From the IMG/VR virus record IMGVR_UViG_3300037245_000992, positions 1 through 44,865 of that record: 44,865 nt of DNA; one strand, given 5' to 3'. Below are positions 113-43,202 of this stretch, piece by piece. The DNA comes from a virus. Positions within the stretch are counted from its first letter, which is position 1, and the number at the start of each line of letters is the position of its first letter. A program made the position numbers and the translations under genes. The notes below the pieces were generated by a model that worked only from the letters and a program-made list of their open reading frames with translations, did no database searches and was not told where the DNA came from.

Positions 113-125
113 GGTAATCATTACC
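113..125 (+). promoter_or_regulatory. 13-bp palindrome overlapping the tRNA-like 5' end
   Basis: GGTAAT-C-ATTACC is a perfect inverted repeat around one base. It ends on the first bases of the tRNA-like acceptor stem (which begins at 124). It is suitable as an operator or a 5'-processing hairpin; no regulator can be assigned. Confidence 0.35.
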
Positions 126-212
126 AATAGTAGCTCAGTGGTAGAGGATCTCGATGTGCAATAATTCTAATTGTACGGGGAAACGTCACCGGTTCGATTC
201 CGGTCTGTTGGT
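124..212 (+). tRNA. tRNA-like gene with aberrant anticodon domain
   Basis: The outer parts are a textbook tRNA. A perfect 7-bp acceptor stem (CCAATAG with CTGTTGG, one G-T) is followed by TA, a D-arm (CTC/GAG around AGTGGTA), and a 5-bp T-stem ACCGG/CCGGT around TTCGATT. The discriminator is T212 and no CCA is encoded. The 40 nt between D- and T-arms do not fold normally. The best stem is GTGCAAT/ATTGTAC (156-162 with 170-176) around AATTCTA, which lacks U33. It leaves about 8 extra nt before it and a short ACG/CGT variable arm after it. TTC would be the formal anticodon, while TCT (Arg) sits in an ATTCTAA context one base out of register. Functional decoding is uncertain; it may be a tRNA mimic. 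Confidence 0.6.
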
Positions 213-243
213 TTATTTAAAGATATGACGATATCTAAATAAA
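212..243 (+). other. Hairpin directly downstream of the tRNA-like gene
   Basis: TTTATTTA pairs with TAAATAAA, and GATAT with ATATC around a GACG loop, with a two-A bulge. There is no U-run after it on the plus strand, so 3'-end processing of the tRNA-like RNA or leader protection for the gene at 266 fits better than termination. Confidence 0.5.
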
Positions 244-265: not shown

Positions 266-778
266 ATGACATACGAAGTAAGATTTACCCTTAAAGAAAG
301 GGATAAAATCAGTTTAAAAATGATAGACAAAAGTCCTATATTTGATGAAGAACATCGATTAAATAGAGACGAAAACAGTTTGGCGCTTTTAGAGTTTATT
401 AACTTTAAAGCCGGTAAAGCAGTGAAAGGAGAATTTCATACAAAAGACGGGGATAATCCAGCATTTATCACTGTAAATGGTGATTTAATGGATTTAGACC
501 ATGATTTACCTGTTGATCTTGATTTTGTTGATCAAGAAAAAGAAATGGATTTTCTTGGTAGTCCTTTCGAAGTCGGCAAATATTATGCTTCAAAAGATCA
601 AACTGCTTGTGGTAGATTAGTTAAGTTTGCATTTAAAGACAATGAAATACGATTTGTATTAAAAGTCATAGCCTTTCCAATGCCTATCGACAAGTCTGTA
701 GATGCTATAATTCAATTGAAACCAGAATATCTGGAAGCTCTTGGAGAATCCCGAAATAATTACTATGAGGAAATATGA
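266..778 (+). CDS. Unrecognised 170-aa acidic protein
   Basis: I do not recognise this protein. It begins MTYEVRFTLKERD, is rich in D/E, has no cysteine cluster, membrane segment or signal peptide, and its alternating hydrophobic pattern suggests beta structure. The start is chosen at 266 because GGAGG at 253-257 sits 8 nt upstream; the in-frame ATG at 251 lies ahead of that ribosome-binding site. It is the first complete gene after the tRNA-like element and is followed two bases later by the next start (780), so the two are co-transcribed and probably coupled. Confidence 0.75.
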   Translation: MTYEVRFTLKERDKISLKMIDKSPIFDEEHRLNRDENSLALLEFINFKAGKAVKGEFHTKDGDNPAFITVNGDLMDLDHDLPVDLDFVDQEKEMDFLGSPFEVGKYYASKDQTACGRLVKFAFKDNEIRFVLKVIAFPMPIDKSVDAIIQLKPEYLEALGESRNNYYEEI

Positions 779-779
779 G

Positions 780-1799
780 ATGAAAAAGATTATATTATTT
801 TTGTTACTTCTAGTAACAACATTGAGCTTTTCGCAAACTGAGTTAGGCTATGATAATTTATTGCTGAAATATTATTTAATGGAAGCCAAGGTTAAACTTG
901 CTGAAACTAAAGAAGCTGAAGCAAGAGTTTTGACGGATCAGTATTTTAGTAATTGGCAAGAGTCAGAACGTATAGTTAATGATTTAAGTATTGAAATAGA
1001 AATTAACAAAACTACTATAACTGTATTAAAATCAACTAATAAAGTTAAGACTTCAACTATTCAAAGTAAAAACATTATTATCAATAATACTCTTTCTAAA
1101 TTAGATACTACTAAAATAGAAAACTATACGTTATCTACTGAGTTGGGAAAAGCTAACGATAAGATTAGCGCCTATAAAAATATATATACTACAGCTATGG
1201 AAGATATGGTTACAGCTGGAACAAGTATAAATATAATGTCTATATTATGGCCTTGGGGTTTAGTAGTAATTACAGTTATTTTATTGATACTATCTTATGC
1301 AGTAATATTTAAAAGTGGTACTAGTATAGAATCTCAAAAAGCATATGATAAATTTCATAAACTAAAAGCTGAAGAGAAAAAAGCAACTAAAGCTAAATCT
1401 TGGGATACAATAAAAGCTGAAGAGAAACTAAAAAGAGATAATAAAAATAAATCTCAATCTCCCCCGTCTAATAAAAAAAATGTAACTCAAATACAAACAC
1501 CTGTTACAGGTAGAGTTAAAAAACCTTTCTTATGGTTCAATAGAGATAAGAAAATTAAGCAGCCTAAGATAAAAGGTTTGAAAAAAGGTGATAAACTTAT
1601 TGATGCGGACTATATGAAAAAGAAATCTACTGAATGCACACTTAATGAAATTTCAGGCTTAGTTAAACCTATAATGACTGTACAGGGTAAAACTGAAGTT
1701 AAGAAAACTAATACTGATTCTAATAAGGATAAAAAAAATAACTCTTATCCATATAAGAAGAGTAATAAAAATAAAAATAAGAAGAAGAAAAAGAAATGA
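780..1799 (+). CDS. Membrane protein: signal peptide, coiled coil, TM, Lys-rich tail
   Basis: 339 residues with a clear layout: a signal peptide or N-terminal anchor at 1-19 (K-K, then I/L/F run, ending SFSQ), a long heptad-like segment at about 30-140, a transmembrane helix at about 156-177 beginning W-P-W-G, and a Lys-rich low-complexity tail to the end. The tail would lie in the cytoplasm and the coiled coil outside. GAGGAA at 768-773 supports the start at 780 over an earlier ATG at 741. I cannot name a family; a spanin- or host-takeover-type membrane protein is conceivable but unsupported. The tail holds the peptide TPVTG within an 18-bp DNA repeat shared with the gene at 3174. The stop overlaps the next start by 4 nt. 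Confidence 0.75.
   Translation: MKKIILFLLLLVTTLSFSQTELGYDNLLLKYYLMEAKVKLAETKEAEARVLTDQYFSNWQESERIVNDLSIEIEINKTTITVLKSTNKVKTSTIQSKNIIINNTLSKLDTTKIENYTLSTELGKANDKISAYKNIYTTAMEDMVTAGTSINIMSILWPWGLVVITVILLILSYAVIFKSGTSIESQKAYDKFHKLKAEEKKATKAKSWDTIKAEEKLKRDNKNKSQSPPSNKKNVTQIQTPVTGRVKKPFLWFNRDKKIKQPKIKGLKKGDKLIDADYMKKKSTECTLNEISGLVKPIMTVQGKTEVKKTNTDSNKDKKNNSYPYKKSNKNKNKKKKKK
1460..1467 (-). repeat. RACGGGGGAR copy 1
   Basis: Minus-orientation copy inside the Lys-rich tail of the gene at 780, where the plus strand reads S-P-P-S. It lies 426 nt from copy 2, which has opposite orientation. Confidence 0.85.
1495..1512 (+). repeat. 18-bp repeat with ACCTGT-T-ACAGGT palindrome, copy A
   Basis: Identical to 3301-3318. 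The palindromic core is 1499-1511. It encodes T-P-V-T-G in the same frame in both genes, so it may be kept for the peptide, for the DNA, or both. Confidence 0.6.
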
Positions 1800-2893
1800 T
1801 TAAAAAACTTCTTTTTATGCTTGTGGTAATTGCGTTAATCGGAGGTAATTTTTACTTCTATAATAAACAATATCGACCTGTAACAACGGGGGAGAATAGT
1901 TTAAATATATTAGCACCTTTACCACTTGAACAAATTACTGAAGCAGTCGAAAAGTACGGGAATGATTTCATTAGCAATCAAGCCTTTACCAGTAATTTTA
2001 TCAACTTAATGAAACTAAGTGACGAACAATTAAATCTTATGTCCGGTATAAGTGTAGAGTTTTATACGCTTTTAACTGAACAATTTAATGTTCTAAATAT
2101 ATATGCCGAAAAATATTATTCGAAACAGCAAAGTTCCGAGAAAGCTTATATAGTAGCTGGATTTTTAGATCTATCTGAAAAAACACTAAATAAGTTATCT
2201 ATAAATGAATTAGTTGCTGTTGCAAAATTACGTGGAGAGACAATTAAAATGTCTCTTAATGAGAAAAATACTTTTAAGATTTTAGAATTTGATAGAATCT
2301 ATAACGTTTTAGCTCATAGGTTACACGATGAACAGATTACATTAAACGAATTGAAAGTTGTCCGTGAGGGAGTACAGAGTGCGCTAGACCTATTTGGAGA
2401 ATTAGAAGCCAACTTAATCACAGGTATGTTTGGATTGTTAGTAATGCCTAAAACTGTAAATAAACTGGTTTTGGGTAGATTAGCGACTATTGAAGAAATG
2501 AAGTATAATTTAACCTTGGAAACGAACAAGTTTCAAAGTACAGGGGATTCTTTTGATCTTGATAGACTAATTATGAACATTCAGGAAACATTGTGGTTAC
2601 ACAAAACCGATCTTAATTATATCCTTGGAAGTAAACTAATTGATGTTTTACCAAGTGGAGTTTACAGGGTAACTAAAGCTTATCCAGACTCTTTCGATAA
2701 GAAGTATAAAGTAGATCAATACCGGATCTCTAGCAGTGTTTCCGGTAATAATTGGGTACATGCAAGCTATTCATTAGATCATGGAATAATCAATATAGAT
2801 TATGGTGTAATGAATGTTGTTGAAATCTTGCTAAAGTTAAATAAAAACCAATATTACATTCATGGTGAATTATTAACAAAGGAGATAACCTAA
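1796..2893 (+). CDS. Membrane-anchored protein of unknown function, 365 aa
   Basis: An N-terminal anchor (residues about 4-22, MIKKLL followed by a hydrophobic run and YFYNKQYRP) precedes a soluble, largely helical body with no cysteines visible. It has the shape of a single-pass protein with its bulk outside the cytoplasm. It overlaps the stop of the preceding membrane protein by 4 nt (ATGA) and the next gene follows immediately, so it belongs to the same transcript. I do not recognise the family. Confidence 0.75.
   Translation: MIKKLLFMLVVIALIGGNFYFYNKQYRPVTTGENSLNILAPLPLEQITEAVEKYGNDFISNQAFTSNFINLMKLSDEQLNLMSGISVEFYTLLTEQFNVLNIYAEKYYSKQQSSEKAYIVAGFLDLSEKTLNKLSINELVAVAKLRGETIKMSLNEKNTFKILEFDRIYNVLAHRLHDEQITLNELKVVREGVQSALDLFGELEANLITGMFGLLVMPKTVNKLVLGRLATIEEMKYNLTLETNKFQSTGDSFDLDRLIMNIQETLWLHKTDLNYILGSKLIDVLPSGVYRVTKAYPDSFDKKYKVDQYRISSSVSGNNWVHASYSLDHGIINIDYGVMNVVEILLKLNKNQYYIHGELLTKEIT
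1886..1893 (+). repeat. RACGGGGGAR copy 2
   Basis: Plus orientation, in the gene at 1796, read as T-T-G-E (aca acg ggg gag). Confidence 0.85.
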
Positions 2894-3163
2894 ATGAAAA
2901 TGACACAAATGATAAATGCGAATACTGCTCACGATAGATCGAGAGGATCAAATATTAGTTCCAGACTCAGAATGATTCATTATAGAATTATATTCTTTTC
3001 TATCGTGCTACGGGCTAAGAAACTTCACGTAGGGAGTTTAACCCCTGAAGAGGTTATTATTTTAAAGAAAAGAGGTTTTGAAATCTCTTCCACTGTTCAA
3101 GATATGACAGTGAATAATAAAATCAAAAGACTTGTAGGACGAAGATTCTGCATTAAATGGTAA
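2894..3163 (+). CDS. Small basic protein of unknown function, 89 aa
   Basis: An AAGGAG just upstream of the ATG at 2894 supports the start. The product is basic (many R/K), with an R-x-R-rich first third and the C-terminal segment LTPEEVIILKKRGFEIS, which could be a helix-turn-helix-like or RNA-binding fold. This is inference from composition only. It is tightly packed between the membrane-anchored protein and the Lys-rich protein at 3174. Confidence 0.6.
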   Translation: MKMTQMINANTAHDRSRGSNISSRLRMIHYRIIFFSIVLRAKKLHVGSLTPEEVIILKKRGFEISSTVQDMTVNNKIKRLVGRRFCIKW

Positions 3164-3173
3164 GGAAATTATT

Positions 3174-4895
3174 TTGAGTAAAAACAAAAGTAAATGTCGT
3201 GGTAAAAAGAACACGGACAAAAACAAAAACACTGAAACAAAAGAAGTAACTACAGCAAAAGATATTGTAAAAAATGCAAAAAATGCAGTAGTTGAAGCAA
3301 AAACACCTGTTACAGGTAAAAAAGCAATTGAAGCTGAAGCAATGAAAACAGACAAAAAAACTGTTGTTGTTAAAGTTAAGCCTAAATTGACTAAAGAAGA
3401 AGCTGCTGCAAAAAAACTTCTTGCAAAAAACAAAAAAGCAGCTGATAAAGAAGCTTATGAAAATAAGAAAAAACTTCAATTAGCTAATCAGCAGCAACAA
3501 GCTGAAAAGAACGCTAAAAAAGCAGCTAAAAAAGCAGAAGTTACTCCTAAAGTAACTCCAAAAGCTGAAGCTGAACCAAAGGAAACAAAAGTTCCTTTCG
3601 TTGAAAAGACAGATGAAACAACATCTGCAAAGTCTACAGCAGAAAAAGCAAAAGAAGAAGTAAAAAAAGAGATTCCGGTTATAGTTGAACCTGAAACTAC
3701 TTCAGAAAGTGCTAAATCTGGTGTAGAAAAACCTATAACCGATTCTAAAGCAGATCCGGAAGTACCGGATGAAAAAGCAATAACACCTATTATGAATACT
3801 TCCAAAAAAGAAAGTATGCATACTAACGCAAAAGGTTTAGATCTTGAATATGAAGTATCTACGTCTGTCGGTGGTAATGAAACAATTAAACCTGTTCAAA
3901 CTGCTACTTGCGGTGGTGTTCATTTTCAACTTTATGTTTGCAACGGTGTTGACGAAAAAGGTAATCTAATGAAGATTACTAATGCCAAAACTCTAAAGAA
4001 ATTTAGACAGGCAAATGGTCAACCTACTGAAGCCTTAGCTAACGCTAAGAATAAAGAGGAACATAAAAATCTTACAAAACAGATTCGTGACATTGTGAAC
4101 GGTAAAAAACGTTCTATAATAAACAGAGTTGCGACTATCTTACCGACGTATATCGGTCTTGTAGGAACTACTGTGATTTGTTGGGATAACAACACAGATT
4201 TTAAAAAGGGAGAAAAACTTGGACATACTATGGGTATGCTTTTAGGTTTTTCTGGTGGTAAAAAGAACTTTGTCGTGGATATTGAGTTAGAAACTGACAA
4301 TGATCAAACACAGCATGTCCTACGTTCTTATGGACATGTAATGCCTTTAGAAGAAGTAAGATTAGGTAACTCTCACCAAGAAAATATAGTGAAAGCTACT
4401 GAAGTTACACAGGAAGCAGAAAAGATTTTAATTACTGATAAAAGAATGGACGATGTAGAGTTCCCAAAAGGATACACTGAAGCAATTGCTAAAGATTCCT
4501 TTGTATCTCTATTAACTTGGAACTCCCCTTATGGTGGAGATAAAGCAGTATTCCATTCTGTAGCCTTTAAAGATGTAGACGGGGAAACCTCCTACAAATG
4601 GGCTTTTCTTGACAGTAAAGGTCAAGCTAAAACGTCGTTTCTCCCAATGAGGGGATCACAGGCTGAATTATTAAGAGCGACTGTCTTAACCATGCAAGGT
4701 GCAATTCCTGACATGGAAGTAATGAGTTTCGCTGAAGATGAATTTGACCAATATGAAAAATGGTGTGGATTCTTTTTCGACTTGGAAAATGAACCAAAAG
4801 AGACTTACAGTGTATCTGAAGTAGTGACAGGAGTTACTAATGAAGAAACAGAACCAGAACAACAAACAGAACAACCACAAGAACAAGCCAGCTAA
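3174..4895 (+). CDS. Lys/Ala/Glu-rich protein with conserved-looking C-terminal domain, 573 aa
   Basis: The first ~215 residues are low-complexity K/A/E/T sequence with repeated KKAAKKAE-type runs, like a disordered or extended linker. The remaining ~350 residues are globular, with aromatic and cysteine residues (VHFQLYVCNG, WCGFFFDLEN). The start is TTG, preceded at 8-9 nt by AAGGAAA. The shared peptide TPVTG sits near residue 45. The highly charged N-terminus with a folded C-terminus resembles nucleic-acid-binding or virion-decorating proteins, but I recognise no family. Its 3' end overlaps the next gene by 56 nt. Confidence 0.7.
   Translation: MSKNKSKCRGKKNTDKNKNTETKEVTTAKDIVKNAKNAVVEAKTPVTGKKAIEAEAMKTDKKTVVVKVKPKLTKEEAAAKKLLAKNKKAADKEAYENKKKLQLANQQQQAEKNAKKAAKKAEVTPKVTPKAEAEPKETKVPFVEKTDETTSAKSTAEKAKEEVKKEIPVIVEPETTSESAKSGVEKPITDSKADPEVPDEKAITPIMNTSKKESMHTNAKGLDLEYEVSTSVGGNETIKPVQTATCGGVHFQLYVCNGVDEKGNLMKITNAKTLKKFRQANGQPTEALANAKNKEEHKNLTKQIRDIVNGKKRSIINRVATILPTYIGLVGTTVICWDNNTDFKKGEKLGHTMGMLLGFSGGKKNFVVDIELETDNDQTQHVLRSYGHVMPLEEVRLGNSHQENIVKATEVTQEAEKILITDKRMDDVEFPKGYTEAIAKDSFVSLLTWNSPYGGDKAVFHSVAFKDVDGETSYKWAFLDSKGQAKTSFLPMRGSQAELLRATVLTMQGAIPDMEVMSFAEDEFDQYEKWCGFFFDLENEPKETYSVSEVVTGVTNEETEPEQQTEQPQEQAS
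3301..3318 (+). repeat. 18-bp repeat with ACCTGT-T-ACAGGT palindrome, copy B
   Basis: Exact match to 1495-1512, palindrome core 3305-3317, again encoding T-P-V-T-G in the Lys-rich region of a different gene. Confidence 0.6.
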
Positions 4896-5340
4896 AGGAA
4901 AGTTTAGTTCATATGATAAACATAGAGGGGATGAAGGAATATTCTTTGTTTCAGCTAAAGACAAGAAAGGTGTTAAAGCTACTCTTGGGTTTATTGGTAA
5001 AAATTGCTTATTCGCTTACACTGCATCTGGTGCAGTTAAAGCATTTCAAAAAGCAGTCTTTAAAGATGATAAGAAGACCGGAGAATTTCAATGTCCGGGT
5101 TGTGGTGAAGATTTAAAATTTAATGTAGAAGTGGTAAAGTCTGGTAAGACTGATCACAAAAAGAGTAAAAATAATAAGTCTAGTAATACTAATGATTCTG
5201 ATGAATACGGAAGATTACACGGAAAACAGTCTACAAAGTCTGTTGCTAAAGGACTTATCAATGTCGCTGAATTCGTCGGCTTAGATGTAAAAGACGATGA
5301 TAACTGGGAAGAACTTATTGAAATATTCAAAGGTAACTAA
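4840..5340 (+). CDS. Small protein with CxxC knuckle, 166 aa
   Basis: The N-terminus is N/Q/K-rich and disordered-looking (residues 1-25). A central domain of about 90 residues carries one CPGCG knuckle, and a Ser/Asn/Lys linker leads to a short acidic helical tail (NWEELIEIF). Only one CxxC pair is visible, so a zinc site would need other ligands or a dimer. The start is supported by GGAG in the 3' end of the preceding gene; the 56-nt overlap implies translational coupling. Function unknown. Confidence 0.65.
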   Translation: MKKQNQNNKQNNHKNKPAKGKFSSYDKHRGDEGIFFVSAKDKKGVKATLGFIGKNCLFAYTASGAVKAFQKAVFKDDKKTGEFQCPGCGEDLKFNVEVVKSGKTDHKKSKNNKSSNTNDSDEYGRLHGKQSTKSVAKGLINVAEFVGLDVKDDDNWEELIEIFKGN

Positions 5341-5422
5341 TAGAGTAAATTGATCGGCTTAATAGCATCGATTTATCTAAAAGTATTCTTAACAATCTAA
5401 GGTGAGATAAAAGCAATTTCAT

Positions 5423-5436
5423 AGATAGCTCTATCT
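5423..5436 (+). promoter_or_regulatory. Inverted repeat AGATAG-CT-CTATCT
   Basis: Lies in the 132-nt gap between the CxxC gene and the small membrane gene at 5473. The two-base centre makes an RNA hairpin unlikely, so a protein-binding operator is more natural. No convincing -35/-10 pair was found beside it. Confidence 0.3.
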
Positions 5437-5472
5437 TGTCTTGGATCAGTTATTTTAAAGGAGGGTTAAAAC

Positions 5473-5646
5473 ATGGAAAATGTTTTAAACAGTCTACTAT
5501 TCGAGTTGTATACTATGAATAGCCTTTTATTTCATATAAGGATTCCAGATTTTAGTTATTTATTTGTATCAGCGCATATTTTACTTATGGTTAGTCATAC
5601 ATCATTATTATACCAGATCAAAAAACTTCGAAGGAGTTTAATTTGA
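5473..5646 (+). CDS. Small membrane peptide, 57 aa
   Basis: A strong ribosome-binding site (AAAGGAGGG) lies 7 nt before the ATG, and the 57-residue product has a hydrophobic stretch at about 29-47 (YLFVSAHILLMV...) followed by a basic end (KKLRRS). It looks like a single-pass membrane peptide with the basic tail in the cytoplasm. Its stop overlaps the TTG start of the next membrane protein by 4 nt, so the two are coupled. Small paired membrane proteins in phages can be holins, superinfection-exclusion or host-takeover factors; nothing distinguishes these here. Confidence 0.65.
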   Translation: MENVLNSLLFELYTMNSLLFHIRIPDFSYLFVSAHILLMVSHTSLLYQIKKLRRSLI

Positions 5647-6023
5647 TAGGTTTAAGCTGGGGATTAGGTTATTTGATTCCTATACTGGTTATATATTTAA
5701 GTGCTTTAGGTATTAAGAAGGCACATAAACAATATGATATAATTGGAGAATCAACAGCAGACATATTGACAGAAAAAGATGAAACAGGATCTAAGATAGA
5801 AAAAATCTATCTGGATTATGCTAAGATTAGAGCGTTCGGTAGTGGTTTGACTCTAATGTTATTATCCGTAGTATTTTTCACTACACCATTTGAGGGTTTT
5901 TGGCTAAATACATTTGCCTTAATTCATAATGGTATTCTTTATGGGATAAATGCTATTCTATTTGTTGAAGGGTTACTTGCGATACAGTTTCCTTTATTTG
6001 ATGGAGTTAAAAAGGACTCCTAA
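5643..6023 (+). CDS. Multi-pass membrane protein, 126 aa
   Basis: Hydrophobic helices at about 3-23, 62-80 and 95-118, with a hydrophilic loop (about 24-58) between the first two, point to a three-pass inner-membrane protein. The start is taken as TTG at 5643 because AAGGAG lies about 7 nt upstream and the frame has no early ATG. Coupled to the 57-aa gene upstream. Function unknown. Confidence 0.65.
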   Translation: MIGLSWGLGYLIPILVIYLSALGIKKAHKQYDIIGESTADILTEKDETGSKIEKIYLDYAKIRAFGSGLTLMLLSVVFFTTPFEGFWLNTFALIHNGILYGINAILFVEGLLAIQFPLFDGVKKDS

Positions 6024-6028
6024 AGGAG

Positions 6029-6511
6029 TTGCTTATTAAAAGATGGAATAAGTACACTAGTACAAAAGATTCGTTTATTGAACGAATTAAGACACTATTT
6101 AGACCTAATATGAGGTCTGGATCATTATTAAAGATCAAGTGCGGAAAGAGAATCTATGAAATGTTTGTAGAAGGTTTTTTTCTTGACCGTAAAGATTATT
6201 CTAAAATTGCACCACTTACGTGGATTCTGGAAAGAGATGTTAATGACATCTTTTATCTTGTTTACGATGTTTCTGTTCATGGACGGGGGAGAGAAAGATT
6301 AAGAAAAGGTTATGTTCATATTCATTTTACGTTAGATCCTGTAAAGGGGTTGACAGTGATAGCCGAAAACCATTATTATGGTAATACCGTTAAACAACTT
6401 AATTTGAAATATTTAAAGTTTTACAATATATTTTACCGTGTTCACAGAAAACTATATCTAAATAAAGAGGTAAGTTGTGAACGATTTAACAAAAAAGGAA
6501 ACTCTTCCTAA
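6029..6511 (+). CDS. Basic protein of unknown function, about 160 aa
   Basis: A soluble, basic protein with many aromatic residues and no motif I recognise. The start is a puzzle. The only early near-cognate is TTG at 6029, which abuts AGGAG (6024-6028) with no spacer. An ATT codon at 6035 has a 6-nt spacer, and the ATG at 6043 is out of frame and stops at once. A rare AUU start is therefore possible (158 aa). The 3' end overlaps the nuclease gene by 35 nt. Confidence 0.6.
   Translation: MLIKRWNKYTSTKDSFIERIKTLFRPNMRSGSLLKIKCGKRIYEMFVEGFFLDRKDYSKIAPLTWILERDVNDIFYLVYDVSVHGRGRERLRKGYVHIHFTLDPVKGLTVIAENHYYGNTVKQLNLKYLKFYNIFYRVHRKLYLNKEVSCERFNKKGNSS
6283..6290 (+). repeat. RACGGGGGAR copy 3
   Basis: Inside the basic protein gene at 6029, read as G-R-G-R (gga cgg ggg aga), a different frame from copies 2 and 7. 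Confidence 0.85.
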
Positions 6512-7430
6512 AAAAAAAGAGAACCGAGAGGGGTTAGCTGGATCTAGTTTTTACGGTCTATTTGGCGATTGTCCACGAAAATGGGCTATCAAATATATTT
6601 TAGGCTTCAAAGAACTTAAGACAGCTAGACCGCTTATTTATGGCAGCGCAATACACGAAGGTATGGAAGTGTTTTATGAAACGAACTCGAAAGATAAGAT
6701 GATTGAAACAGTTCTAAACTATCTGGATCTTCATTCAAGTAATTATATTAACCCTAATGACTGTACGAAAGATAAAACGAAAGCTACAGATTCACTAGAA
6801 TATTGGTATGATACATACGGACAATATGATTTGGAAAAGTTTGATATCTTAGGAAATGAACTCGCTTTTACGTATAGGCTAGAAAATGGCCTAGACTATA
6901 TTCTTAGACCGGATAGACTTATTAAAGAAAAGTCTACAGGCCACATTTATGTACTAGACACTAAAACAACCGGAGTTAGTGTTACTTATACGGTACGTAG
7001 GATTGCTAAATCCGACCAACCTGTTGGTTATTTGGCTGGAATAAAACCTATCTACGGAAATGCTTTTCGTGGATGGATTAGCGATATAATAGTTGCTACC
7101 GGAAGAAAAGTAGATGCTTTTCGTCCAGAACCTTTAGAATATGATCCATATGTTTTCAAATTATGGGAGTATTCGTTAATGTCACTTATTGAGGATTTAA
7201 CAGGCCGATACAAGATGCTGAATGATGGTGGTTCACTAGAGTTTCTATTCCCTTACAGAAAGTCTGCTTGTAGTGTTTATAGTTGTCCTTACCAAGAGAT
7301 TTGTACAAAACATCTGACTTTGGATTCCAACCCCGAAGATTATGGTTTTATATTAGATCCTTGGATTAAAGAGAGTAAAGTTAAAGACCTAATGGAAAGT
7401 AACTTTAAAAAATTATCAACAAATATTTAA
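6477..7430 (+). CDS. Cas4/RecB-like PD-(D/E)XK nuclease with Fe-S cysteines
   Basis: 317 residues, GTG start with AAAGAGG 6 nt upstream. Visible hallmarks are a first cysteine (C32, GDCPRKW), a RecB-type SAIHEGMEVFYE helix with its His, the motif-II aspartate in RPDRL, a D-x-K motif in VLDTKTTG, and three C-terminal cysteines (C265, C270, C276 in CSVYSCPYQEIC). This C...CxxxxC-x5-C pattern is that of the iron-sulfur nucleases of the Cas4/AddB group, which resect DNA 5' or 3' ends. In phages they sit in recombination/replication modules. Here it is followed by Sak4-like and SSB-like genes, which fits a single-strand annealing or repair unit. Confidence 0.85.
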   Translation: MNDLTKKETLPKKKENREGLAGSSFYGLFGDCPRKWAIKYILGFKELKTARPLIYGSAIHEGMEVFYETNSKDKMIETVLNYLDLHSSNYINPNDCTKDKTKATDSLEYWYDTYGQYDLEKFDILGNELAFTYRLENGLDYILRPDRLIKEKSTGHIYVLDTKTTGVSVTYTVRRIAKSDQPVGYLAGIKPIYGNAFRGWISDIIVATGRKVDAFRPEPLEYDPYVFKLWEYSLMSLIEDLTGRYKMLNDGGSLEFLFPYRKSACSVYSCPYQEICTKHLTLDSNPEDYGFILDPWIKESKVKDLMESNFKKLSTNI

Positions 7431-8833: not shown

Positions 8834-9172
8834 ATGATAACAATAGCATTAGCCACTCTTTTGATTCTAGTAATCTATATTTTGTGGCAATCACATAAAA
8901 TAAACATGCTGAAGGATGATGTTAGTATGTTTAAAGAGTCCTATGATTCTATGACTAAAAGATCTTTAGATCTTGAAATAGAACTAGGGAAGGTAAATAA
9001 AAGATATGAAGGCATTTATGAACAAGCTAAGACTATCGACGAACGCATGGAAAGGATTAGTGACGATCCTATTGCTTTGTGTGACATTGCAAACCGTCGG
9101 TACACAAACCACGGAGAATCCGATGATTCCGACGATATCATTGAAGGCGAGTTCACAGTTTCTAACAGTTAG
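8834..9172 (+). CDS. Single-pass membrane coiled-coil protein, 112 aa
   Basis: An N-terminal transmembrane helix (residues about 2-18) is followed by a hydrophilic heptad-like region (to about 75) and an acidic Ser/Asp tail (ESDDSDDIIEGEF). The type II anchor would leave the coiled coil on the other side of the membrane or in the cytoplasm depending on topology. GAGGGGG at 8823-8829 serves as ribosome-binding site. It overlaps the next membrane protein in another frame; the pair resembles two-component membrane complexes in layout only. Function unknown. Confidence 0.65.
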   Translation: MITIALATLLILVIYILWQSHKINMLKDDVSMFKESYDSMTKRSLDLEIELGKVNKRYEGIYEQAKTIDERMERISDDPIALCDIANRRYTNHGESDDSDDIIEGEFTVSNS

Positions 9173-9476
9173 AACTAGTGATCTTAAGCCAGCATTTATG
9201 ATCCTCTCCCCCGTCCTAGCATTTAACGATATGCTAACGGATGCAATTCTATGGGATGAATTGGGTAACCCTCTTCTTGAATTGGGAAAGGATCTAGAAC
9301 AACTAGAAGCAATGCAAAATACCGTTATCGCAGACTATGCTTCAGAGAATGAACTGCTAAAAGAAGATAACGAAGACTTACGAAGGAAATCACCGTTCAG
9401 AGACAAGCTAACTTGGGCTTTATGCGGACTCCTGTCAGGAAGTGTATTAACATTTATACTAACTTTACTATATTGA
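9123..9476 (+). CDS. Tail-anchored coiled-coil membrane protein, about 117 aa
   Basis: The downstream part is convincing: an acidic helical segment (GNPLLELGKDLEQLEAMQN...LLKEDNEDLRRK) and a C-terminal transmembrane helix (the last ~22 residues, WALCGLLSGSVLTFILTLLY). The start is uncertain: ATG at 9123 has GGAG 8 nt upstream and overlaps the previous gene by 50 nt, while ATG at 9198 begins after that gene but has no good ribosome-binding site. It probably works with the membrane protein encoded just upstream. No family recognised. Confidence 0.55.
   Translation: MIPTISLKASSQFLTVRTSDLKPAFMILSPVLAFNDMLTDAILWDELGNPLLELGKDLEQLEAMQNTVIADYASENELLKEDNEDLRRKSPFRDKLTWALCGLLSGSVLTFILTLLY
9207..9214 (-). 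repeat. RACGGGGGAR copy 5
   Basis: Minus orientation within the gene at 9123, plus strand read as L-S-P-V. It is 431 nt from copy 4, which has opposite orientation. Confidence 0.85.
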
Positions 9477-17380: not shown

Positions 17381-17634
17381 TGGATGAAAAGCAAATCAAT
17401 ACGGTGGAAATTACTACAAGTATAGGCTTACCGTTTGTTTTTGAAATTAGTGAGAAAGAAGATCTGACTCCATTTATTGTAGATATATGGTTAGGTGGCA
17501 CTGAATGTGTCACTGACACTATTATGCCTTACATAAATTGTAAGACGGATCTATATAAGTCTATAATTATGGCCTATGAAAACAGGAGAAAAAAAGATGA
17601 ACAACTTCTCAATAGAGAACTGCTTAATACCTAA
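17380..17634 (+). CDS. Unrecognised 84-aa protein
   Basis: Overlaps the previous stop by one base and the GroES-like gene by 38 nt. Small, mixed-charge, with two or three cysteines (GGTECV, NCKTD) and an RKK-rich helix near its end. The ribosome-binding site of the downstream gene lies within its 3' end. No family recognised. Confidence 0.55.
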   Translation: MDEKQINTVEITTSIGLPFVFEISEKEDLTPFIVDIWLGGTECVTDTIMPYINCKTDLYKSIIMAYENRRKKDEQLLNRELLNT

Positions 17635-17911
17635 CGGTACTAGAGTTTTTATTAAAAAACAATCAGTAGAAGAACGGACAGAATCTGGACTTTGGAAGCC
17701 TAAACAAATGGTAGAAAAGGAAAATCTACAATCTAACTTAGGAATTATTGTTGCTGTCGGAGATCTAGTAAAATCTGATAATTGTAAAGTAAATACTCTA
17801 GTTTCTTTTAAAGGTATGACAGAAATGAATATGTCTGTAGAAGGACAGGATTATATAGTAATATTCGAAGAAGCTATTATATGCTACTTTAAAGCAAAGG
17901 AGTCTAAATGA
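17597..17911 (+). CDS. GroES-like co-chaperonin
   Basis: 104 residues from ATG at 17597 (AGGAG ~10 nt upstream). The pattern PNGTRVFIKKQSVEERTESGL, then LGIIVAVGD, then VNTLVSFKGMTEMNMSVEGQDYIVIFEEAIICYF follows the GroES/Cpn10 fold closely: N-terminal strand, mobile loop (E-R-T-E-S-G-L), GxVxAVG, and the D/E-G-x-x-Y-x-I-x-E-E end. T4 Gp31 is the known precedent: a phage co-chaperonin that works with host GroEL to fold the capsid protein. That is the likely role here. Confidence 0.8.
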   Translation: MNNFSIENCLIPNGTRVFIKKQSVEERTESGLWKPKQMVEKENLQSNLGIIVAVGDLVKSDNCKVNTLVSFKGMTEMNMSVEGQDYIVIFEEAIICYFKAKESK

Positions 17912-18408
17912 ACTTAACAGAACAAATAGAAGCTTTAAAAATTAAACGAGACAACGTTAAAGGAACAGAAACTGAAAAGTATGCCAGAATAGTAGGCTAC
18001 TACAGAGCAGTTAAAAACTGGAACATTGGTAAAAAAGAAGAATGGAAAGCACGAGTTAGCTACAATAAACTAAAGTTTGATACAAAAAAACATGGTAATG
18101 TAGACTATTCAGAGAAACCATCTGATATCAATGTACCTAGTTCATGGGGAAATAAAGTACATAAATACATATTCTTTTATCGTACAACATGTCCTAACTG
18201 TCCTCCAGTAAAAGCTATAATGTATAAATTAAGACTAGCTGGTAAAGCAATTAACGTAGATTCTAACGATGGTTTTATTAAAGCACAACAATTTGACGTT
18301 ATGACAGCACCTACTGTTGTATTTTTAGATAAGGACGGGGGAGAGATTTATAGAACTTCCATAATCAAAGATTTAAAAACATTTATTGAAGACAAGGAAT
18401 TATCATGA
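17908..18408 (+). CDS. Thioredoxin-like protein (CPNC)
   Basis: 166 residues. The C-terminal ~85 carry a thioredoxin fold: KYIFFYRTTCPNCPPVKAIM with active-site C95-P-N-C98, and TAPTVVFLD with the cis-proline. The N-terminal ~85 residues are a charged helical extension with no recognised domain. In T7, host thioredoxin is the polymerase clamp; phage-coded versions elsewhere support ribonucleotide reduction or redox control. No ribonucleotide reductase is visible here, so the partner is open. ATGA overlap with the GroES-like gene. Confidence 0.85.
   Translation: MNLTEQIEALKIKRDNVKGTETEKYARIVGYYRAVKNWNIGKKEEWKARVSYNKLKFDTKKHGNVDYSEKPSDINVPSSWGNKVHKYIFFYRTTCPNCPPVKAIMYKLRLAGKAINVDSNDGFIKAQQFDVMTAPTVVFLDKDGGEIYRTSIIKDLKTFIEDKELS
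18335..18342 (+). repeat. RACGGGGGAR copy 10
   Basis: In the thioredoxin-like gene, read as K-D-G-G-E. Confidence 0.85.
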
Positions 18409-29738: not shown

Positions 29739-29963
29739 TTATCGCTCCTCTTTTTGAAGCTTAGCTCCAATAGCTCTCTTAGCTGCATTTACGGTAAGCA
29801 AACTAACTCCAGTTGTTAACCAAGTGTTCATCAACGGAAGCACTTCATTGATATTACCGATTCCTATTGCAGGAAACAGTGACAATGTTGAGATTACAGC
29901 TGCATAAATTATACACATATATCCAACAGTCTTCATTTTATTTGTTTTAGGCTCAATTAACAT
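29739..29963 (-). CDS. Candidate holin, 74 aa
   Basis: Two hydrophobic segments (residues ~13-32 and ~46-60) and a basic tail (KRAIGAKLQKEER) give the two-pass layout of class II holins. It overlaps the 3' end of the candidate endolysin gene by 7 nt, the usual lysis-pair arrangement. Its Shine-Dalgarno is the G-run word itself (GGGGGAGAGAA before ATG). Anti-holin or other small membrane roles are possible. Confidence 0.65.
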   Translation of the reverse strand: MLIEPKTNKMKTVGYMCIIYAAVISTLSLFPAIGIGNINEVLPLMNTWLTTGVSLLTVNAAKRAIGAKLQKEER

Positions 29964-30439
29964 TTCTCTCCCCCGTCAATATAAAAATATCTTTTTCCAA
30001 ATACTTTACCAGTACGTCTAAGTCGTTTATCTGGATCATATTCATCTGTTACAAAATGACCACCAAGATGATCGTTTCCTTCTTTATCTGTCCAAAGTAT
30101 CTGAACATTATTTACTATAGCGTTTATTAGATCTGACATAGTTTCTTTATGAAAAGTTAATTTACCTTCTTTCTCAGATCCTACATAATGAAATCTAGCT
30201 TCACTGTTACCTAGTTCTCTTAGAACTAAAGTTCCTACTTTTGCTGGATTATTTACATAGCATTTAAACGTCATGTATTTAAGCTCAATTGCTTGTTCGT
30301 ATACATGCATAACTTGTGAAGGTAATAATGTTTTTTTCATGAACCTACATGCTAAAAAAAGTATGGACATAAAGTAACATCCATACTTATTTATTTGTCT
30401 AATAAACCACTTAGATGTTTGTTGTGGTAATTCTTTCAT
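29957..30439 (-). CDS. Candidate endolysin: papain-like Cys-His-Asp hydrolase
   Basis: 160 residues. INKYGCYFMS puts a cysteine (C21) at the start of a helix, and GGHFVTDEYDP gives His128 followed by acidic residues, in the order and spacing of papain-like (C39, NlpC/P60-type) enzymes; the opening also resembles DUF261 proteins. Placement directly before a two-pass holin suggests that it cuts cell-wall peptide, though no signal peptide or cell-wall-binding domain is present. AAGGAAA upstream of ATG. The His and Cys assignment comes from inspection only. Confidence 0.55.
   Translation of the reverse strand: MKELPQQTSKWFIRQINKYGCYFMSILFLACRFMKKTLLPSQVMHVYEQAIELKYMTFKCYVNNPAKVGTLVLRELGNSEARFHYVGSEKEGKLTFHKETMSDLINAIVNNVQILWTDKEGNDHLGGHFVTDEYDPDKRLRRTGKVFGKRYFYIDGGEKC
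29969..29976 (-). repeat. RACGGGGGAR copy 15
   Basis: End of the endolysin candidate, read as I-D-G-G-E, and ribosome-binding site of the holin. Preceded by TATATTG like copy 8. Confidence 0.85.
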
Positions 30440-33075: not shown

Positions 33076-35301
33076 TTAGTAAAAAATCTCTGCTATATTA
33101 CTAGTTGATGGGCTATTATAGCTGAATGTAGTACTATAAGCATTACTTTTGAAAGTAATATTAGTGTTGATTAAAGAAGTACCTTGCATAATACCAGAGA
33201 ATACTGAACCAACAGAGAATATTATAGTAACAGGCATACAGTAGTATCTAGTTCCACCGGGAATAGGTACTTTATATGGTTCAACACCCCTTAGTAATGC
33301 ATTAAAATAAGTATAGATATCACCTTGTGTTAGTATATCTGTACCATCAGCTACTCTATAACCATAACCGCCTGTTTTATTTATACTACCATCAACACTT
33401 ATACGATTATTGAATATTATATTGTGATCACTATTTATTTGTAATGCAATTACACTACCTAAATCTGTGGTAATTTCTCCTACTGTTTCCCAAATGCTAT
33501 TCCTAAAATCTTGAAAAGTGATCTTTCCACTATCTACAACTGTACGTTGATCATTTAAAGTACTTGTTAAAGTTCCGTTTGCAGTTAGGTCTGTACAAGT
33601 TATAGATCCACCAGAATTAACTATAAATTTATCATTATCTGTCTTAGTACCTACTTTAAGTGTACCTAATATTTGTACTTCTGTTCCTGTATCTATTAAG
33701 ACATTATCTAAATTAGACGAAGCTCCTAGAACTATCTTGGCTGCACCGATGCTTACTAAACTACCATTAGAATCTGCTCCTAAAGCAATAAATGATTCAT
33801 TATGATAATCTATCCCGTCTACGTTTGTTCCTATAGCAGTAACATTTAATGCTATATTTGCATGTGCTTCGGGTAGACCTGTAACAGGATCATTAACTTG
33901 ACTATCTAAAGTAATAAGAGCGCTAGATTCAGCTTTATTAGTTATTGCTAAAGCATTATCACCTATTAAATCAGCATTATCACCAATAGCTGTAACATTT
34001 GTGCTTATATTGATATTAGCTTCAGCCAATCCTGTAACTGGATCATATACTGTACTATTTAGAGTTATTACTGAATTGCTATTAGTAGTAATAAGCCCTG
34101 AGTTAGTTCCAATATCGTCTGAATTATTTCCTATATTGGTAACGTTTGTACCTATATCAGTTACATTATCGCTGATTCCAGTTACGTTTGTTCCAATTTG
34201 TATATTTGATTGTGTTAAATCAGAATTAAGTGTAATTATAGCTCCACTATTAGTGCTTATTAAACCACCATTTGTGTCTATATCATCTACATTATCACTT
34301 ATACCTGTAACATTAGTTCCAATTTGTATTTCTGAAGCATCAACTCTAGCGTCTAAAACGATAAATGCTTCGGCTAGATCTTGTGTGTCTTCTTCTACAG
34401 CACCTACTCTAATGTCTATAGTTCCCTGACCTACAGTAATTTGGCTCATCGACCATTGATGTTCCTCATCTATATTCTGTACATCTTTAGAAATCTTCTG
34501 TAAATGATAACTCAAATATGCTGTACCATTTAGAACATCTATAAAAGCAGCTTCTGTATCTGTTACAAACTGAGCATAAGTTACATCTACAAAATTATTC
34601 AATGAATCATCATTAGTCGCATCTGTAGTCTCTTCCCAGTCAGTAATACTATAAGCTTGCGCTTCTGTTTTAGGAACAATACATACCCATACACCGTCTG
34701 TTATATCTCTTGTCCATAAATCCCCTACATCATAAGGAACTTGAGGAGTAATTCCTGTAAATACTCTTCTTTTACCATCAGCTGTATCTTGGGCTAATGA
34801 CGCATTCTGTAATGCTAAAGTAACACCAGAATCAGTCCATTCTTTCCAGTAATAAACTGTAGGAACATCTGATACAAAGTGATACGTTTTACCATTTAAA
34901 CCATCGTAATAAACATCACCTAAATGTTGATCTTTAGTTGCATCATCTGTCCAGTTTACAGCAGGTTCATTTAACAACGTAGGAGTTCCATCATAGAACC
35001 AACTAGTATAACCTGACTGTAAGTTTGCATTTATAGTATCAATATCATCTAAAATCGCTTCCGTCTCAGCAGCAGTTCTAACTTCTTCATAAAAATTAGT
35101 TATACTACTAGTAGAGATTTCGCCTACATCTAAAATCCAAGGATCTTTAATGCTTAGGACGGGGGAGCTTGTGATGTTAATGTCATCAAAATAAAAAGCA
35201 TCAAATGGGAACAAGTTCATATCTTGTCCAGTAATACTTTGACTCTGACTCCTACCCACTCCAGTTATTGCAACTGCATTTTGTGTAATCTCTGTTGCCA
35301 T
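33076..35301 (-). CDS. Long tail fibre with N-x-T/I-G-x-N repeats, 741 aa
   Basis: The N-terminal ~300 residues are globular, attachment-like. Residues about 310-510 hold degenerate repeats of the type NIQIGTNVTGISDNV / ITLNS, regular enough to form a triple coiled coil or beta-helix. The C-terminus ends in a beta-rich tip. This is the layout of host-recognition fibres and of the DUF1983-like region of lambda gpJ-type proteins. The G-run word lies antisense near its N-terminal codons (35159). Confidence 0.7.
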   Translation of the reverse strand: MATEITQNAVAITGVGRSQSQSITGQDMNLFPFDAFYFDDINITSSPVLSIKDPWILDVGEISTSSITNFYEEVRTAAETEAILDDIDTINANLQSGYTSWFYDGTPTLLNEPAVNWTDDATKDQHLGDVYYDGLNGKTYHFVSDVPTVYYWKEWTDSGVTLALQNASLAQDTADGKRRVFTGITPQVPYDVGDLWTRDITDGVWVCIVPKTEAQAYSITDWEETTDATNDDSLNNFVDVTYAQFVTDTEAAFIDVLNGTAYLSYHLQKISKDVQNIDEEHQWSMSQITVGQGTIDIRVGAVEEDTQDLAEAFIVLDARVDASEIQIGTNVTGISDNVDDIDTNGGLISTNSGAIITLNSDLTQSNIQIGTNVTGISDNVTDIGTNVTNIGNNSDDIGTNSGLITTNSNSVITLNSTVYDPVTGLAEANINISTNVTAIGDNADLIGDNALAITNKAESSALITLDSQVNDPVTGLPEAHANIALNVTAIGTNVDGIDYHNESFIALGADSNGSLVSIGAAKIVLGASSNLDNVLIDTGTEVQILGTLKVGTKTDNDKFIVNSGGSITCTDLTANGTLTSTLNDQRTVVDSGKITFQDFRNSIWETVGEITTDLGSVIALQINSDHNIIFNNRISVDGSINKTGGYGYRVADGTDILTQGDIYTYFNALLRGVEPYKVPIPGGTRYYCMPVTIIFSVGSVFSGIMQGTSLINTNITFKSNAYSTTFSYNSPSTSNIAEIFY
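35159..35166 (+). repeat. RACGGGGGAR copy 16
   Basis: Antisense in the long fibre gene; coding strand reads S-S-P-V-L. Confidence 0.85.
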
Positions 35302-41350: not shown

Positions 41351-43202
41351 TTGAATCAACTCCTAATTGTTCGTCTTTCTGAGTGTCAAGTTGTTTTAAC
41401 ATCAACTCAAGATTCCTAACATATGGTAGGTAATCTTCAATATCATCAATATTAAAGTTCTCAAACATACCACGCATCATCTTAACTTTACCTACATACA
41501 AGCTTCCAAGCGCATCAGTTAACCCTTCAGGTAAACCACCTTGTGCAAGAACTTGTGCATATTGTAAAATCTCTTGACCAAATGCAGTATAAACTTCGTA
41601 CAATTGCATCATACCTTGTCTTTTAGCTGCTTCAGTTTCAGAAAGTTCCGTAGTACTTACATTCAATTTAAACGTTGTCGCCAACTCATGAATATTCAAA
41701 CTAAAAATCTGTCTCAACTTCTCTTCGTCATAAGGACTAACCATAGAATAGTCAACCCGATCTTTGTTAGCAACCAATTGCGTAACAAGAATCATACCCA
41801 ACCTAGAAAAACTCTGACTAATATTATCTCTAACAGCATCAAGTATTCCATCTGCCTGAGCAGCTAAAAACTTAGTACCAGTTGCGCCAATACGATTACC
41901 TTCAGATTGATCTAAACCACCCAACTGTGCAGGTGCTCCAGAGGCTTCTCTGGCATATTGTTGTGCTCGTTGTTCTGCTGCCATAGCTCCTTGCGAAACA
42001 TCAGGAAATTCAAAGTCTTTAATATCAGCCACATCATCTATCAATATGATTTTTCCCGGCTTCAATTCAGTTGTTTCGTCTATACCAGAATCTCTTCTAG
42101 CTGCTTTCATTCCAAGCATTGCCAAGTGTCTTCCGTCAATATCCATATTATGAAGCGTCTCAGCTTCACCTTGCATCTGACTTGTAATATCTCCAACACC
42201 CATACTATAAAACATATGAGGCAATTTAATATATGAAATATTATCAAACGGTCTTACACCTAACTTGTTATATTCAGTTCTCAAAATAGTCTTAGTAGTA
42301 GGTTCAAAAGTTACTACAATATCTTCAGGAACTCCGTTACCATCTATATCCCAAAAAACATAAGCTTCAAAGATCTCAAACTCAGTAGACTCTTTAACAT
42401 TCTCAGAATCAATAGTAATTCCTCGATCTCTTAACTCTGCTGCATAATTTTCATCATCAATAGTTTTAACGTCAGAAGTCAACAACTCTACATTAGAATA
42501 AATCCCCTGAGAAGCTTTCTGAAGTAAATCATGATAATAAACACGATTTCTTCTAGCGATCCAAGGAGCATTCTGAATATTCTCGAAATGCCCTCTAATA
42601 AAGAAATCCTCTATCTTAAGCGCAATCAATCCCGGCGAATCCTGAATAGTCTTTACAACTTCCTCAGTAACACCTTCTTCAGTTTCTACTCTAAACTTCT
42701 GCTGTTTAAATACCCAAGGCATATGTACTACCTGATCTCCTAATCTACAAAGATCATAAAACATTTGTCTTTTCTTCTCACCGATATTCAAATGATTTTT
42801 ACTCACAGCAAGTAAATTAAGATACTTAGTCAATGAATCTGCATGTTCATTCCAAGCATCATCCCTTGCTTCTACTTTCCATAATGGTTTCTGTTCAGCA
42901 AAACTACCAACTAACTTAGCTGTAATAGTATTGATAATACTCATCATTATAGGAGGCACTACATTAGATGCACCCTCCCAAGGAAAGTCCTTATTCTTAT
43001 TCTCCGGCAAAGCCATAGATTGCCGTCTATAGGTCTTCCAAAGAATCTCTCTAGCATTCCTTTCAGACTTAGCTAATTCTAACTCCGAAGTCAAATAATC
43101 AATAACCATAATCTGTTGTTCTTCATCTTTAAAAACACTCAGATTAGCGCTTCGACTATCTTCTTCTACTTCCGGTATAACTTCAAATATACTTTCAGCC
43201 AT
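41253..43202 (-). CDS. Portal protein, 649 aa
   Basis: A large protein directly after the terminase block, with WEGASNVVPPIMMSIINTITAKLVGSF near residue 75 and a long alpha-helical C-terminal half (EAAKRQGMMQLYEVYTAFGQEI) ending in a Gly/Gln/Ser-rich tail (GGLGVQTGSQGSAVAGS). These are the marks of podoviral portals, which form the DNA entry ring and the motor docking site. AAGGAG precedes the ATG. Confidence 0.8.
   Translation of the reverse strand: MAESIFEVIPEVEEDSRSANLSVFKDEEQQIMVIDYLTSELELAKSERNAREILWKTYRRQSMALPENKNKDFPWEGASNVVPPIMMSIINTITAKLVGSFAEQKPLWKVEARDDAWNEHADSLTKYLNLLAVSKNHLNIGEKKRQMFYDLCRLGDQVVHMPWVFKQQKFRVETEEGVTEEVVKTIQDSPGLIALKIEDFFIRGHFENIQNAPWIARRNRVYYHDLLQKASQGIYSNVELLTSDVKTIDDENYAAELRDRGITIDSENVKESTEFEIFEAYVFWDIDGNGVPEDIVVTFEPTTKTILRTEYNKLGVRPFDNISYIKLPHMFYSMGVGDITSQMQGEAETLHNMDIDGRHLAMLGMKAARRDSGIDETTELKPGKIILIDDVADIKDFEFPDVSQGAMAAEQRAQQYAREASGAPAQLGGLDQSEGNRIGATGTKFLAAQADGILDAVRDNISQSFSRLGMILVTQLVANKDRVDYSMVSPYDEEKLRQIFSLNIHELATTFKLNVSTTELSETEAAKRQGMMQLYEVYTAFGQEILQYAQVLAQGGLPEGLTDALGSLYVGKVKMMRGMFENFNIDDIEDYLPYVRNLELMLKQLDTQKDEQLGVDSSGDRKNAEGLGGLGVQTGSQGSAVAGSVQASV

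What the first reader, a model, noticed from the sequence alone, without database searches (positions are those of the whole stretch)
266..6511. A 6-kb block of unrecognised, membrane-linked and Lys-rich genes
Nine consecutive genes have no family I know. Four have membrane segments (780, 1796, 5473, 5643), two have long K-rich disordered parts (780, 3174) and two share an exact 18-bp palindrome repeat. Their tight overlaps imply one transcript. This looks like a coherent module at the host membrane, perhaps for takeover, exclusion of other phages or assembly of a membrane-bound replication site.
Basis: partly seen in the sequence, partly recalled or inferred. Interest (0 to 1): 0.55.

Follow-up and report, generated by a model that had tools for sequence, protein, structure and literature searches.

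The report
Conserved orphan early-gene block in phage
Nine neighbouring phage genes that match no known family have counterparts in the same order in the one close relative found that covers that spot, which points to a real but still unexplained gene set, partly aimed at the host membrane.

Summary
The nine genes (266-6511) are real, same-strand and densely packed, and match nothing in Pfam, PHROGs, NCBIfam or PADLOC above chance. They lie just before the exonuclease-Sak4-SSB-polymerase genes of a podovirus-like virus distantly related to Methanomicrobiales virus vir526. Its closest long relative found, IMG/VR contig G012 (portal and terminase 63-64% identical, probably complete), has a counterpart of all nine in the same order and strand. 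Six are supported by score; three (266, 780, 2894) rest mainly on position and layout. G012 is the only relative this close that spans the locus. More distant relatives mostly show rows of small genes there.

Layout is kept although sequence is not (21-30% identity): 780 = signal peptide, coiled-coil-like part, membrane segment, Lys-rich tail; 1796 = tethered outside the membrane (lipobox in G012); 5643 = three membrane segments. The "palindrome" follows from coding Pro-Val-Thr-Gly. Best reading: a fast-evolving, host-envelope-directed early module, possibly superinfection exclusion. No function is shown. The record is incomplete upstream of 266.

The parts
266..778 (+). Block gene 1, 170 aa, acidic, no family; ATG at 251 in frame is an alternative start
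   Evidence: Counterpart in G012 at contig 53662..53171: Smith-Waterman z 3.5, 1 or more of 200 shuffles higher, BLASTP prefers another protein; rests on position
780..1799 (+). Block gene 2, 339 aa: likely signal peptide, coiled-coil-like part, membrane segment at residues 159-177, Lys-rich tail
   Evidence: G012 53121..52048 has the same layout; z 3.0, 1 or more of 200 shuffles higher, no BLASTP hit at E 5
1796..2893 (+). Block gene 3, 365 aa, N-terminal membrane anchor, rest probably outside
   Evidence: G012 52100..50955 z 17.7, tblastn E 5e-9, with lipobox LTGC read by eye
2894..3163 (+). Block gene 4, 89 aa, basic
   Evidence: G012 50951..50637 z 4.2, above 200 of 200 shuffles, BLASTP E 0.19; rests mainly on position
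3174..4895 (+). Block gene 5, 573 aa: Lys-rich N-terminal part, conserved C-terminal domain (about residues 322-526)
   Evidence: G012 50620..49016 z 16.5, tblastn E 3e-11; the 9-residue GKKAIEAEA in the Lys-rich part is identical in both
4840..5340 (+). Block gene 6, 166 aa, Lys-rich, overlaps gene 5 by 56 bases
   Evidence: G012 49041..48562 z 14.5, BLASTP E 2e-6, also overlaps its neighbour
5341..5472 (.). 132-base gap inside the block with a 14-base dyad at 5423-5436, no more frequent than chance
5473..5646 (+). Block gene 7, 57 aa, borderline hydrophobic
   Evidence: G012 48328..48080 z 14.6, tblastn E 2e-6
5643..6023 (+). Block gene 8, 126 aa, three membrane segments
   Evidence: G012 47234..46848 z 8.3, BLASTP E 0.002, three segments at similar places
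6029..6511 (+). Block gene 9, 160 aa, basic; exonuclease start lies inside its end
   Evidence: G012 46030..45569 z 10.6, BLASTP E 1e-6, same overlap with the exonuclease
1495..1512 (+). First copy of the 18-bp repeat, codes Thr-Pro-Val-Thr-Gly in 780
3301..3318 (+). Second copy of the 18-bp repeat, codes Thr-Pro-Val-Thr-Gly in 3174
6477..7430 (+). PD-(D/E)XK exonuclease, right flank of the block
   Evidence: Pfam PF12705 E 3e-13, PHROG 1218; 43% identical in G012
123..213 (+). tRNA-like gene before the block, possible 15-base insert

Best explanation
The block is a lineage-specific, co-oriented early gene module of an uncultivated podovirus-like virus group. Three of its products are directed to the host envelope: 780 (signal peptide, coiled-coil-like outer part, membrane segment, Lys-rich inner tail), 1796 (tethered to the outer face of the membrane, by a membrane helix here and probably by lipid in G012) and 5643 (three membrane segments). 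They are probably made together with cytoplasmic basic or Lys-rich partners (2894, 3174, 4840, 6029). Most likely the membrane set changes what crosses the host cytoplasmic membrane soon after infection, for example by blocking DNA entry of later phages, while the basic proteins bind a polyanion such as nucleic acid or ribosomes. Shown: gene content, order, kinship to G012 for six genes, strong divergence. Predicted: topology. Inferred: kinship of the other three, early timing, common transcript, location and function.
For: Counterparts of all nine collinear in G012. Layout kept at 21-30% identity. The block diverges more than most of its surroundings (exonuclease 43%, Sak4 49%, polymerase 56%, primase-helicase 61%, portal 63%, terminase 64%), as expected for host-facing proteins. 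Position on the replication arm just before exonuclease, Sak4, SSB and polymerase. Precedents: inner-membrane SieA blocks P22 DNA injection and has sequence types under 30% identical (PMC10883804, abstract seen); Ltp is a surface lipoprotein for superinfection exclusion (PMC3952083, passages seen).
Against: No sequence match to any known exclusion or takeover protein. Six of nine genes show no clear membrane segment, and membrane proteins are not significantly enriched in the block. The SSB-like gene next door is as divergent (31%), and several other early genes have no significant match in G012, so fast divergence is not special to the block. Only one relative spans the locus. Exclusion proteins are best known from temperate phages (general knowledge); I ran no search for an integrase.
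Confidence: 0.42

Rival explanations
1. The nine genes are independent early genes that happen to sit together in the variable early arm, each with its own small host-interaction role. Order is kept in G012 only because the two viruses are close.
For: Unknown genes before the exonuclease also occur in vir526 (29 annotated genes) and other relatives. G012 inserts four unrelated genes into the block. The whole genome is largely collinear with G012, so kept order is partly expected. Most products look cytoplasmic and membrane proteins are not significantly enriched.
Against: Several other early genes of the window (for example 12413, 12992, 15872, 17908) have no significant match in G012, whereas all nine block genes have a counterpart in place. 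Block genes are larger than the early genes of most relatives and keep layout.
Confidence: 0.33
2. The block builds a membrane-anchored replication or expression site: 780 is the anchor whose Lys-rich inner tail binds viral nucleic acid or ribosomes, 3174 and 4840 are its soluble partners.
For: Directly joined to the recombination and replication genes. Lys-rich tails on both a membrane protein and soluble neighbours, kept in the G012 counterpart of 780 (23% Lys). phi29 p1 and p16.7 anchor replication to the membrane (PMC4974454, passages seen).
Against: No match to phi29-type proteins in Pfam or PHROGs. A replication scaffold would be expected to be as conserved as the polymerase (56%), not 21-30%. 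The N-terminal 200 residues of the G012 counterpart of 3174 are less Lys-rich (15%) and balanced by acidic residues (22.5%).
Confidence: 0.17
3. The block encodes lysis, virion or DNA-delivery proteins.
For: Three membrane proteins and a coiled-coil-like outer part would suit holin or spanin-like roles.
Against: Virion genes lie on the other strand, where a small two-helix protein (29739) beside a DUF261 protein (29957) looks more like a lysis cassette (that reading is inference). The block is on the replication arm.
Confidence: 0.06

Closest known systems
Caudoviricetes sp. vir526 (BK063670, host given as Methanomicrobiales)
   Same: Same overall plan: rightward exonuclease, Sak4, polymerase, primase-helicase; leftward giant protein, head, portal, terminase; about 30-34% identity in polymerase, portal and terminase; also a row of mostly unknown genes before the exonuclease
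   Different: That row is 29 annotated, mostly small genes; no block gene has a detectable match in it
IMG/VR contig G012 (IMGVR_UViG_3300043219_000134, unnamed virus)
   Same: Counterparts of all nine genes in order; 56-64% identity in polymerase, primase-helicase, portal and terminase
   Different: Four extra genes inside the block, lipobox on the 1796 counterpart, two bL12-domain proteins that the window record does not hold
Anabaena phage A-4L (NC_024358)
   Same: Distant terminase kin (25%); rightward arm that begins with unknown genes, leftward virion arm
   Different: No block gene detected; replication genes in another order
Ltp-type exclusion lipoproteins and P22 SieA (works like, not kin)
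   Same: Phage-encoded protein on the outer face of, or in, the cytoplasmic membrane; SieA types diverge strongly
   Different: No match of any block protein to such a family in the libraries scanned
phi29 p1 and p16.7 (works like, not kin)
   Same: Phage membrane proteins tied to replication
   Different: No match to any such family; 780 has a likely signal peptide with the basic tail predicted inside

Membership tests
vir526-like podovirus group | Homologous terminase, portal, major head protein, polymerase and primase-helicase in the same two-arm layout | tested here: met
   tblastn E 4e-62, 3e-102, 6e-46, 2e-60 and 5e-69 against L002; layout
vir526-like podovirus group | Carries the nine-gene block | tested here: not met
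   phmmer --max against 56 loci: only 1796 at E 0.066, in L052 and L055; two-sequence profiles: nothing for the nine below E 0.26 in the held loci apart from G012 pieces. Strongly diverged copies could be missed
G012 lineage module | Counterparts of all nine genes, same order and strand, directly before the exonuclease | tested here: met
   1 of 1 other genome at 61-64% terminase identity that covers the locus; L058, L060 and L088 end before it
Ltp-type superinfection-exclusion lipoproteins | Match to a curated family model | tested here: not met
   No Pfam hit at E <= 1 for 1796 or its G012 counterpart
Ltp-type superinfection-exclusion lipoproteins | Lipoprotein signal with Cys | tested here: not met
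   Window 1796 has no Cys in its N-terminal segment; the G012 counterpart has LTGC; read by eye, no predictor run
Ltp-type superinfection-exclusion lipoproteins | Two repeat regions in the mature protein | not tested
   Feature seen in PMC3952083 passages; no repeat search run on 1796
[quoted passage not shown]
   Membrane segments predicted; the block needs an experiment
phi29 p16.7-type replication organisers | Match to a family model | tested here: not met
   No such hit for any block protein in Pfam, PHROGs or NCBIfam
Ribosomal protein S19 (considered for the 3174 C-terminal domain) | Match to Pfam PF00203 | tested here: not met
   0 of 2 genomes at E <= 10 while 14 of 14 controls ring; profile against PDB sequences E 0.18

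The most novel reading that the evidence does not exclude
The nine genes encode one membrane-anchored viral apparatus in which 780, tethered through the membrane with a Lys-rich inner tail, gathers viral nucleic acid or host ribosomes through 3174 and 4840 beside the replication proteins, while 1796 works outside: a phage membrane factory made of protein families absent from the four libraries scanned.
Probability: 0.13. Interest if true: 0.75.

Novelty: new variant of a known kind. Interest (0 to 1): 0.42.

Why it matters
Early regions of phages hold most of their unknown genes, and usually nothing tells which of them work together. Here a second genome keeps counterparts of all nine genes in order at 21-30% identity and keeps the membrane layout, which turns nine unknown ORFs into a defined candidate module with conserved segments and clear first targets (1796, 780, 3174). 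If it is an exclusion or membrane-replication system, it would be built from families that Pfam, PHROGs, NCBIfam and PADLOC do not hold.

Tried and rejected
Palindrome as an operator: rejected as the simplest reading, not excluded. Both exact copies code Pro-Val-Thr-Gly, whose codons are self-complementary; a near copy at 33877-33889 is also such a codon run, in the tail protein. Against me: near copies are more frequent than in shuffles and the repeat itself is rare by codon shuffle (2 of 400). G012 has no exact 13-base core, but an 11-base core at 18117, inside the counterpart of the same tail protein. The G012 counterpart of 3174 lacks Thr-Pro-Val-Thr; that of 780 keeps those four residues. 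Apart from this peptide 780 and 3174 show no significant similarity.

Ribosomal S19 likeness of the 3174 C-terminal domain: profile hit to archaeal S19 at E 0.18 and z 4.7 and 3.9 against the printed S19 stretch. That stretch came out of a search of 177,635 sequences, and Pfam PF00203 gave nothing while all 14 controls rang. A lead only.

Structure: single-sequence AlphaFold2 models of the 3174 C-terminal part and of 1796 were too poor (pLDDT 32.5 and 40.3), so no fold search was run.

Relatives: single-protein scans of viral contigs with 3174, polymerase, terminase, 1796, 780 and 4840 found none; the other five block proteins were not scanned so. Phage records gave no match for 3174 or for the G012 counterparts of 3174 and 1796. 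The genome search with 3174 reported 0 of 18 records although G012 among them holds a counterpart, so the empty answers are no evidence of absence.

Lysis or virion role: see rivals. Host: open. Shine-Dalgarno-like sites precede 43 of 53 genes against 6% of random places, which speaks against Bacteroidia (PMC9976891, start of abstract in the listing), while the signal peptides of 780 and its counterpart have Gln near the likely cut, as in the Bacteroidetes Q-rule (PMC5837995, start of abstract in the listing).
Full report
1. What is there. The window is a virus record of 44,865 bases, 34% G+C, with no end repeat found. Genes run rightward from 266 to about 20,544 and leftward from 44,864 to 20,605. 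The rightward arm holds a PD-(D/E)XK exonuclease (6477), a Sak4-like protein (7453), an SSB-like protein (8270), a polymerase (9575) and a primase-helicase (13837); the leftward arm holds tail, head, portal and terminase genes. The terminase at the right end lacks its N-terminal part, about 170 residues against vir526. So the record is incomplete just where the block begins.

2. The block. Nine + strand ORFs occupy 266-6511. Neighbours overlap or lie within about 10 bases, except for a 132-base gap at 5341-5472. By the motif rule, seven of the nine starts have an SD-like site, as do 43 of 53 window genes (6% of random places). Best library matches are E 0.027 (PHROGs), 0.016 (Pfam), 0.0072 (NCBIfam) and 0.0041 (PADLOC), below curated cut-offs where these exist and without a common theme. 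I treat them as chance.

3. Relatives. Among 50,697 named phage records terminase finds 8, best vir526 (30%), then cyanophages such as A-4L. vir526 shares the overall plan. An alignment of the two polymerases reached 25 IMG/VR loci. With each block protein alone, phmmer --max over 56 loci (L002-L057) gave only 1796 at E 0.066 in two loci, while exonuclease, Sak4, primase-helicase, portal, head and terminase did match. A five-sequence terminase alignment then reached 72 loci, four at 61-64% identity: L058, L059, L060 and L088.

4. The decisive comparison. L059 lies in contig G012, 59,972 bases. Its two ends repeat each other over 187 bases with 184 identities, so it is probably a complete circular genome. 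tblastn at E <= 0.1 places 1796, 3174 and 5473 in G012 in order, followed by the exonuclease. Listing its genes shows a candidate counterpart for every block gene: 266, 780, 1796, 2894, 3174, 4840, [77 aa], 5473, [141 aa], [153 aa], 5643, [277 aa], 6029, exonuclease. Smith-Waterman z against 200 shuffles, in the order 266, 780, 1796, 2894, 3174, 4840, 5473, 5643, 6029: 3.5, 3.0, 17.7, 4.2, 16.5, 14.5, 14.6, 8.3, 10.6. For 9 of 9 the best of 37 candidates is the one in the expected place. By BLASTP with composition adjustment this holds for 7 of 9: 266 prefers another protein (E 0.58 against 1.7) and 780 does not list its counterpart at E 5. For 266 and 780 at least one shuffle scored higher than the real pair. 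A plain tblastn of the whole contig also misses 266, 780, 2894, 5643 and 6029. So six are supported by score (5643 the weakest, BLASTP E 0.002) and 266, 780 and 2894 rest mainly on position, size and layout. The nearby gene 9018 also has a counterpart before the polymerase (z 10.1). L058, L060 and L088 stop before the block, so conservation is 1 of 1 genomes of this closeness that can show it.

5. Layout under divergence. Block pairs are 21-30% identical; exonuclease 43%, Sak4 49%, polymerase 56%, primase-helicase 61%, portal 63%, terminase 64%, but the SSB-like protein only 31%. 780 and its counterpart share likely signal peptide, middle part, membrane segment and Lys-rich tail (28% and 23% Lys); 5643 and its counterpart share three membrane segments at similar positions; 1796 is tethered by a membrane helix here and probably by lipid (LTGC) in G012 (signal peptides, coiled coil and lipobox read by eye). 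The hydrophobic stretch of 3174 is not kept (maximum 0.93 in G012) and is probably not a membrane segment. The CPGC of 4840 is CSC in G012, so a zinc site is doubtful. In the Lys-rich part of 3174 nine residues, GKKAIEAEA, are identical in both viruses, the longest exact match of any of the nine pairs: a possible short binding motif. Other early genes, for example 12413, 12992, 15872 and 17908, have no significant match in G012, so the block is not the only fast-changing part.

6. More distant relatives. By a crude gene caller the window has 9 genes of mean 227 aa there, 3 of at least 300 aa, 4 with a hydropathy peak (one, in 3174, discounted above); vir526 has 19 of mean 111 aa with 0 and 0. 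G002, G018 and G023 show rows of small genes with few peaks; the stretches held for G010 and A-4L each have one gene of at least 300 aa and one with a peak. Two-sequence profiles of the nine find nothing below E 0.26 in the held loci apart from G012 pieces, while the exonuclease profile finds many. This is absence at this sensitivity, not proof of absence.

7. The repeat. The 18-bp repeat encodes Thr-Pro-Val-Thr-Gly in 780 and 3174. Codons for Pro-Val-Thr-Gly (CCn GTn ACn GGn) are self-complementary at all fixed bases, so the dyad needs no DNA-level cause, although both repeat and near copies of its core exceed shuffles. G012 has no exact core and its 3174 counterpart lacks the peptide.

8. 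Mechanism. I commit to a host-envelope-directed early module (0.42), with exclusion of later phages as its likeliest single use (perhaps 0.2). Independent early genes (0.33), a membrane-anchored replication or expression site (0.17) and a lysis or virion role (0.06) remain. Early expression, membrane location and function are inferred. Papers: SieA (abstract), Ltp (passages), phi29 p1 and p16.7 (passages), virus-encoded ribosomal proteins (passages). I did not search the literature for this block itself.

9. Verdict. It is more than a random stack of unknown ORFs, but short of a demonstrated system.

Noticed in passing
window 123-213 +: A tRNA gene that ARAGORN finds only with introns allowed: tRNA-His(GTG) with 15 extra bases in the anticodon loop, near the usual place of archaeal tRNA introns (that last point recalled). 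The insert could instead be an extended anticodon stem. G012 has no tRNA by the same scan.
   Followed up: partly
G012 contig 53935-54066 and 41402-41572, - strand (loci L150, L151): Two proteins with a bL12 C-terminal domain above Pfam's cut-off; the first lies directly upstream of the block. bL12 domains in phages are known (PMC6375957, passages).
   Followed up: partly
window 8834-9172 + and 9018-9476 +: Two overlapping membrane proteins just before the polymerase; 9018 (hydrophobic at both ends) has a counterpart in G012 (z 10.1). G002 and G004 have proteins of similar layout between Sak4 and polymerase, without sequence similarity.
   Followed up: partly
window 17576-17911 +: GroES-like co-chaperonin (PF00166 E 5e-10); vir526 also carries a groS gene, elsewhere in its genome.
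   Followed up: no
window 17908-18408 +: Protein that joins a stretch like the C-terminal end of anaerobic ribonucleotide reductase (PF13597, over cut-off) to a glutaredoxin-like part (below cut-off).
   Followed up: no
window 29739-30439 -: Small two-helix protein beside a DUF261 protein (PF03196 E 4e-11) in the virion arm; a possible lysis cassette.
   Followed up: no
window right end, 43662-44864 -: Terminase lacks its N-terminal part; by comparison with G012 about 12 kb between terminase and the first block gene may be missing from this record.
   Followed up: partly
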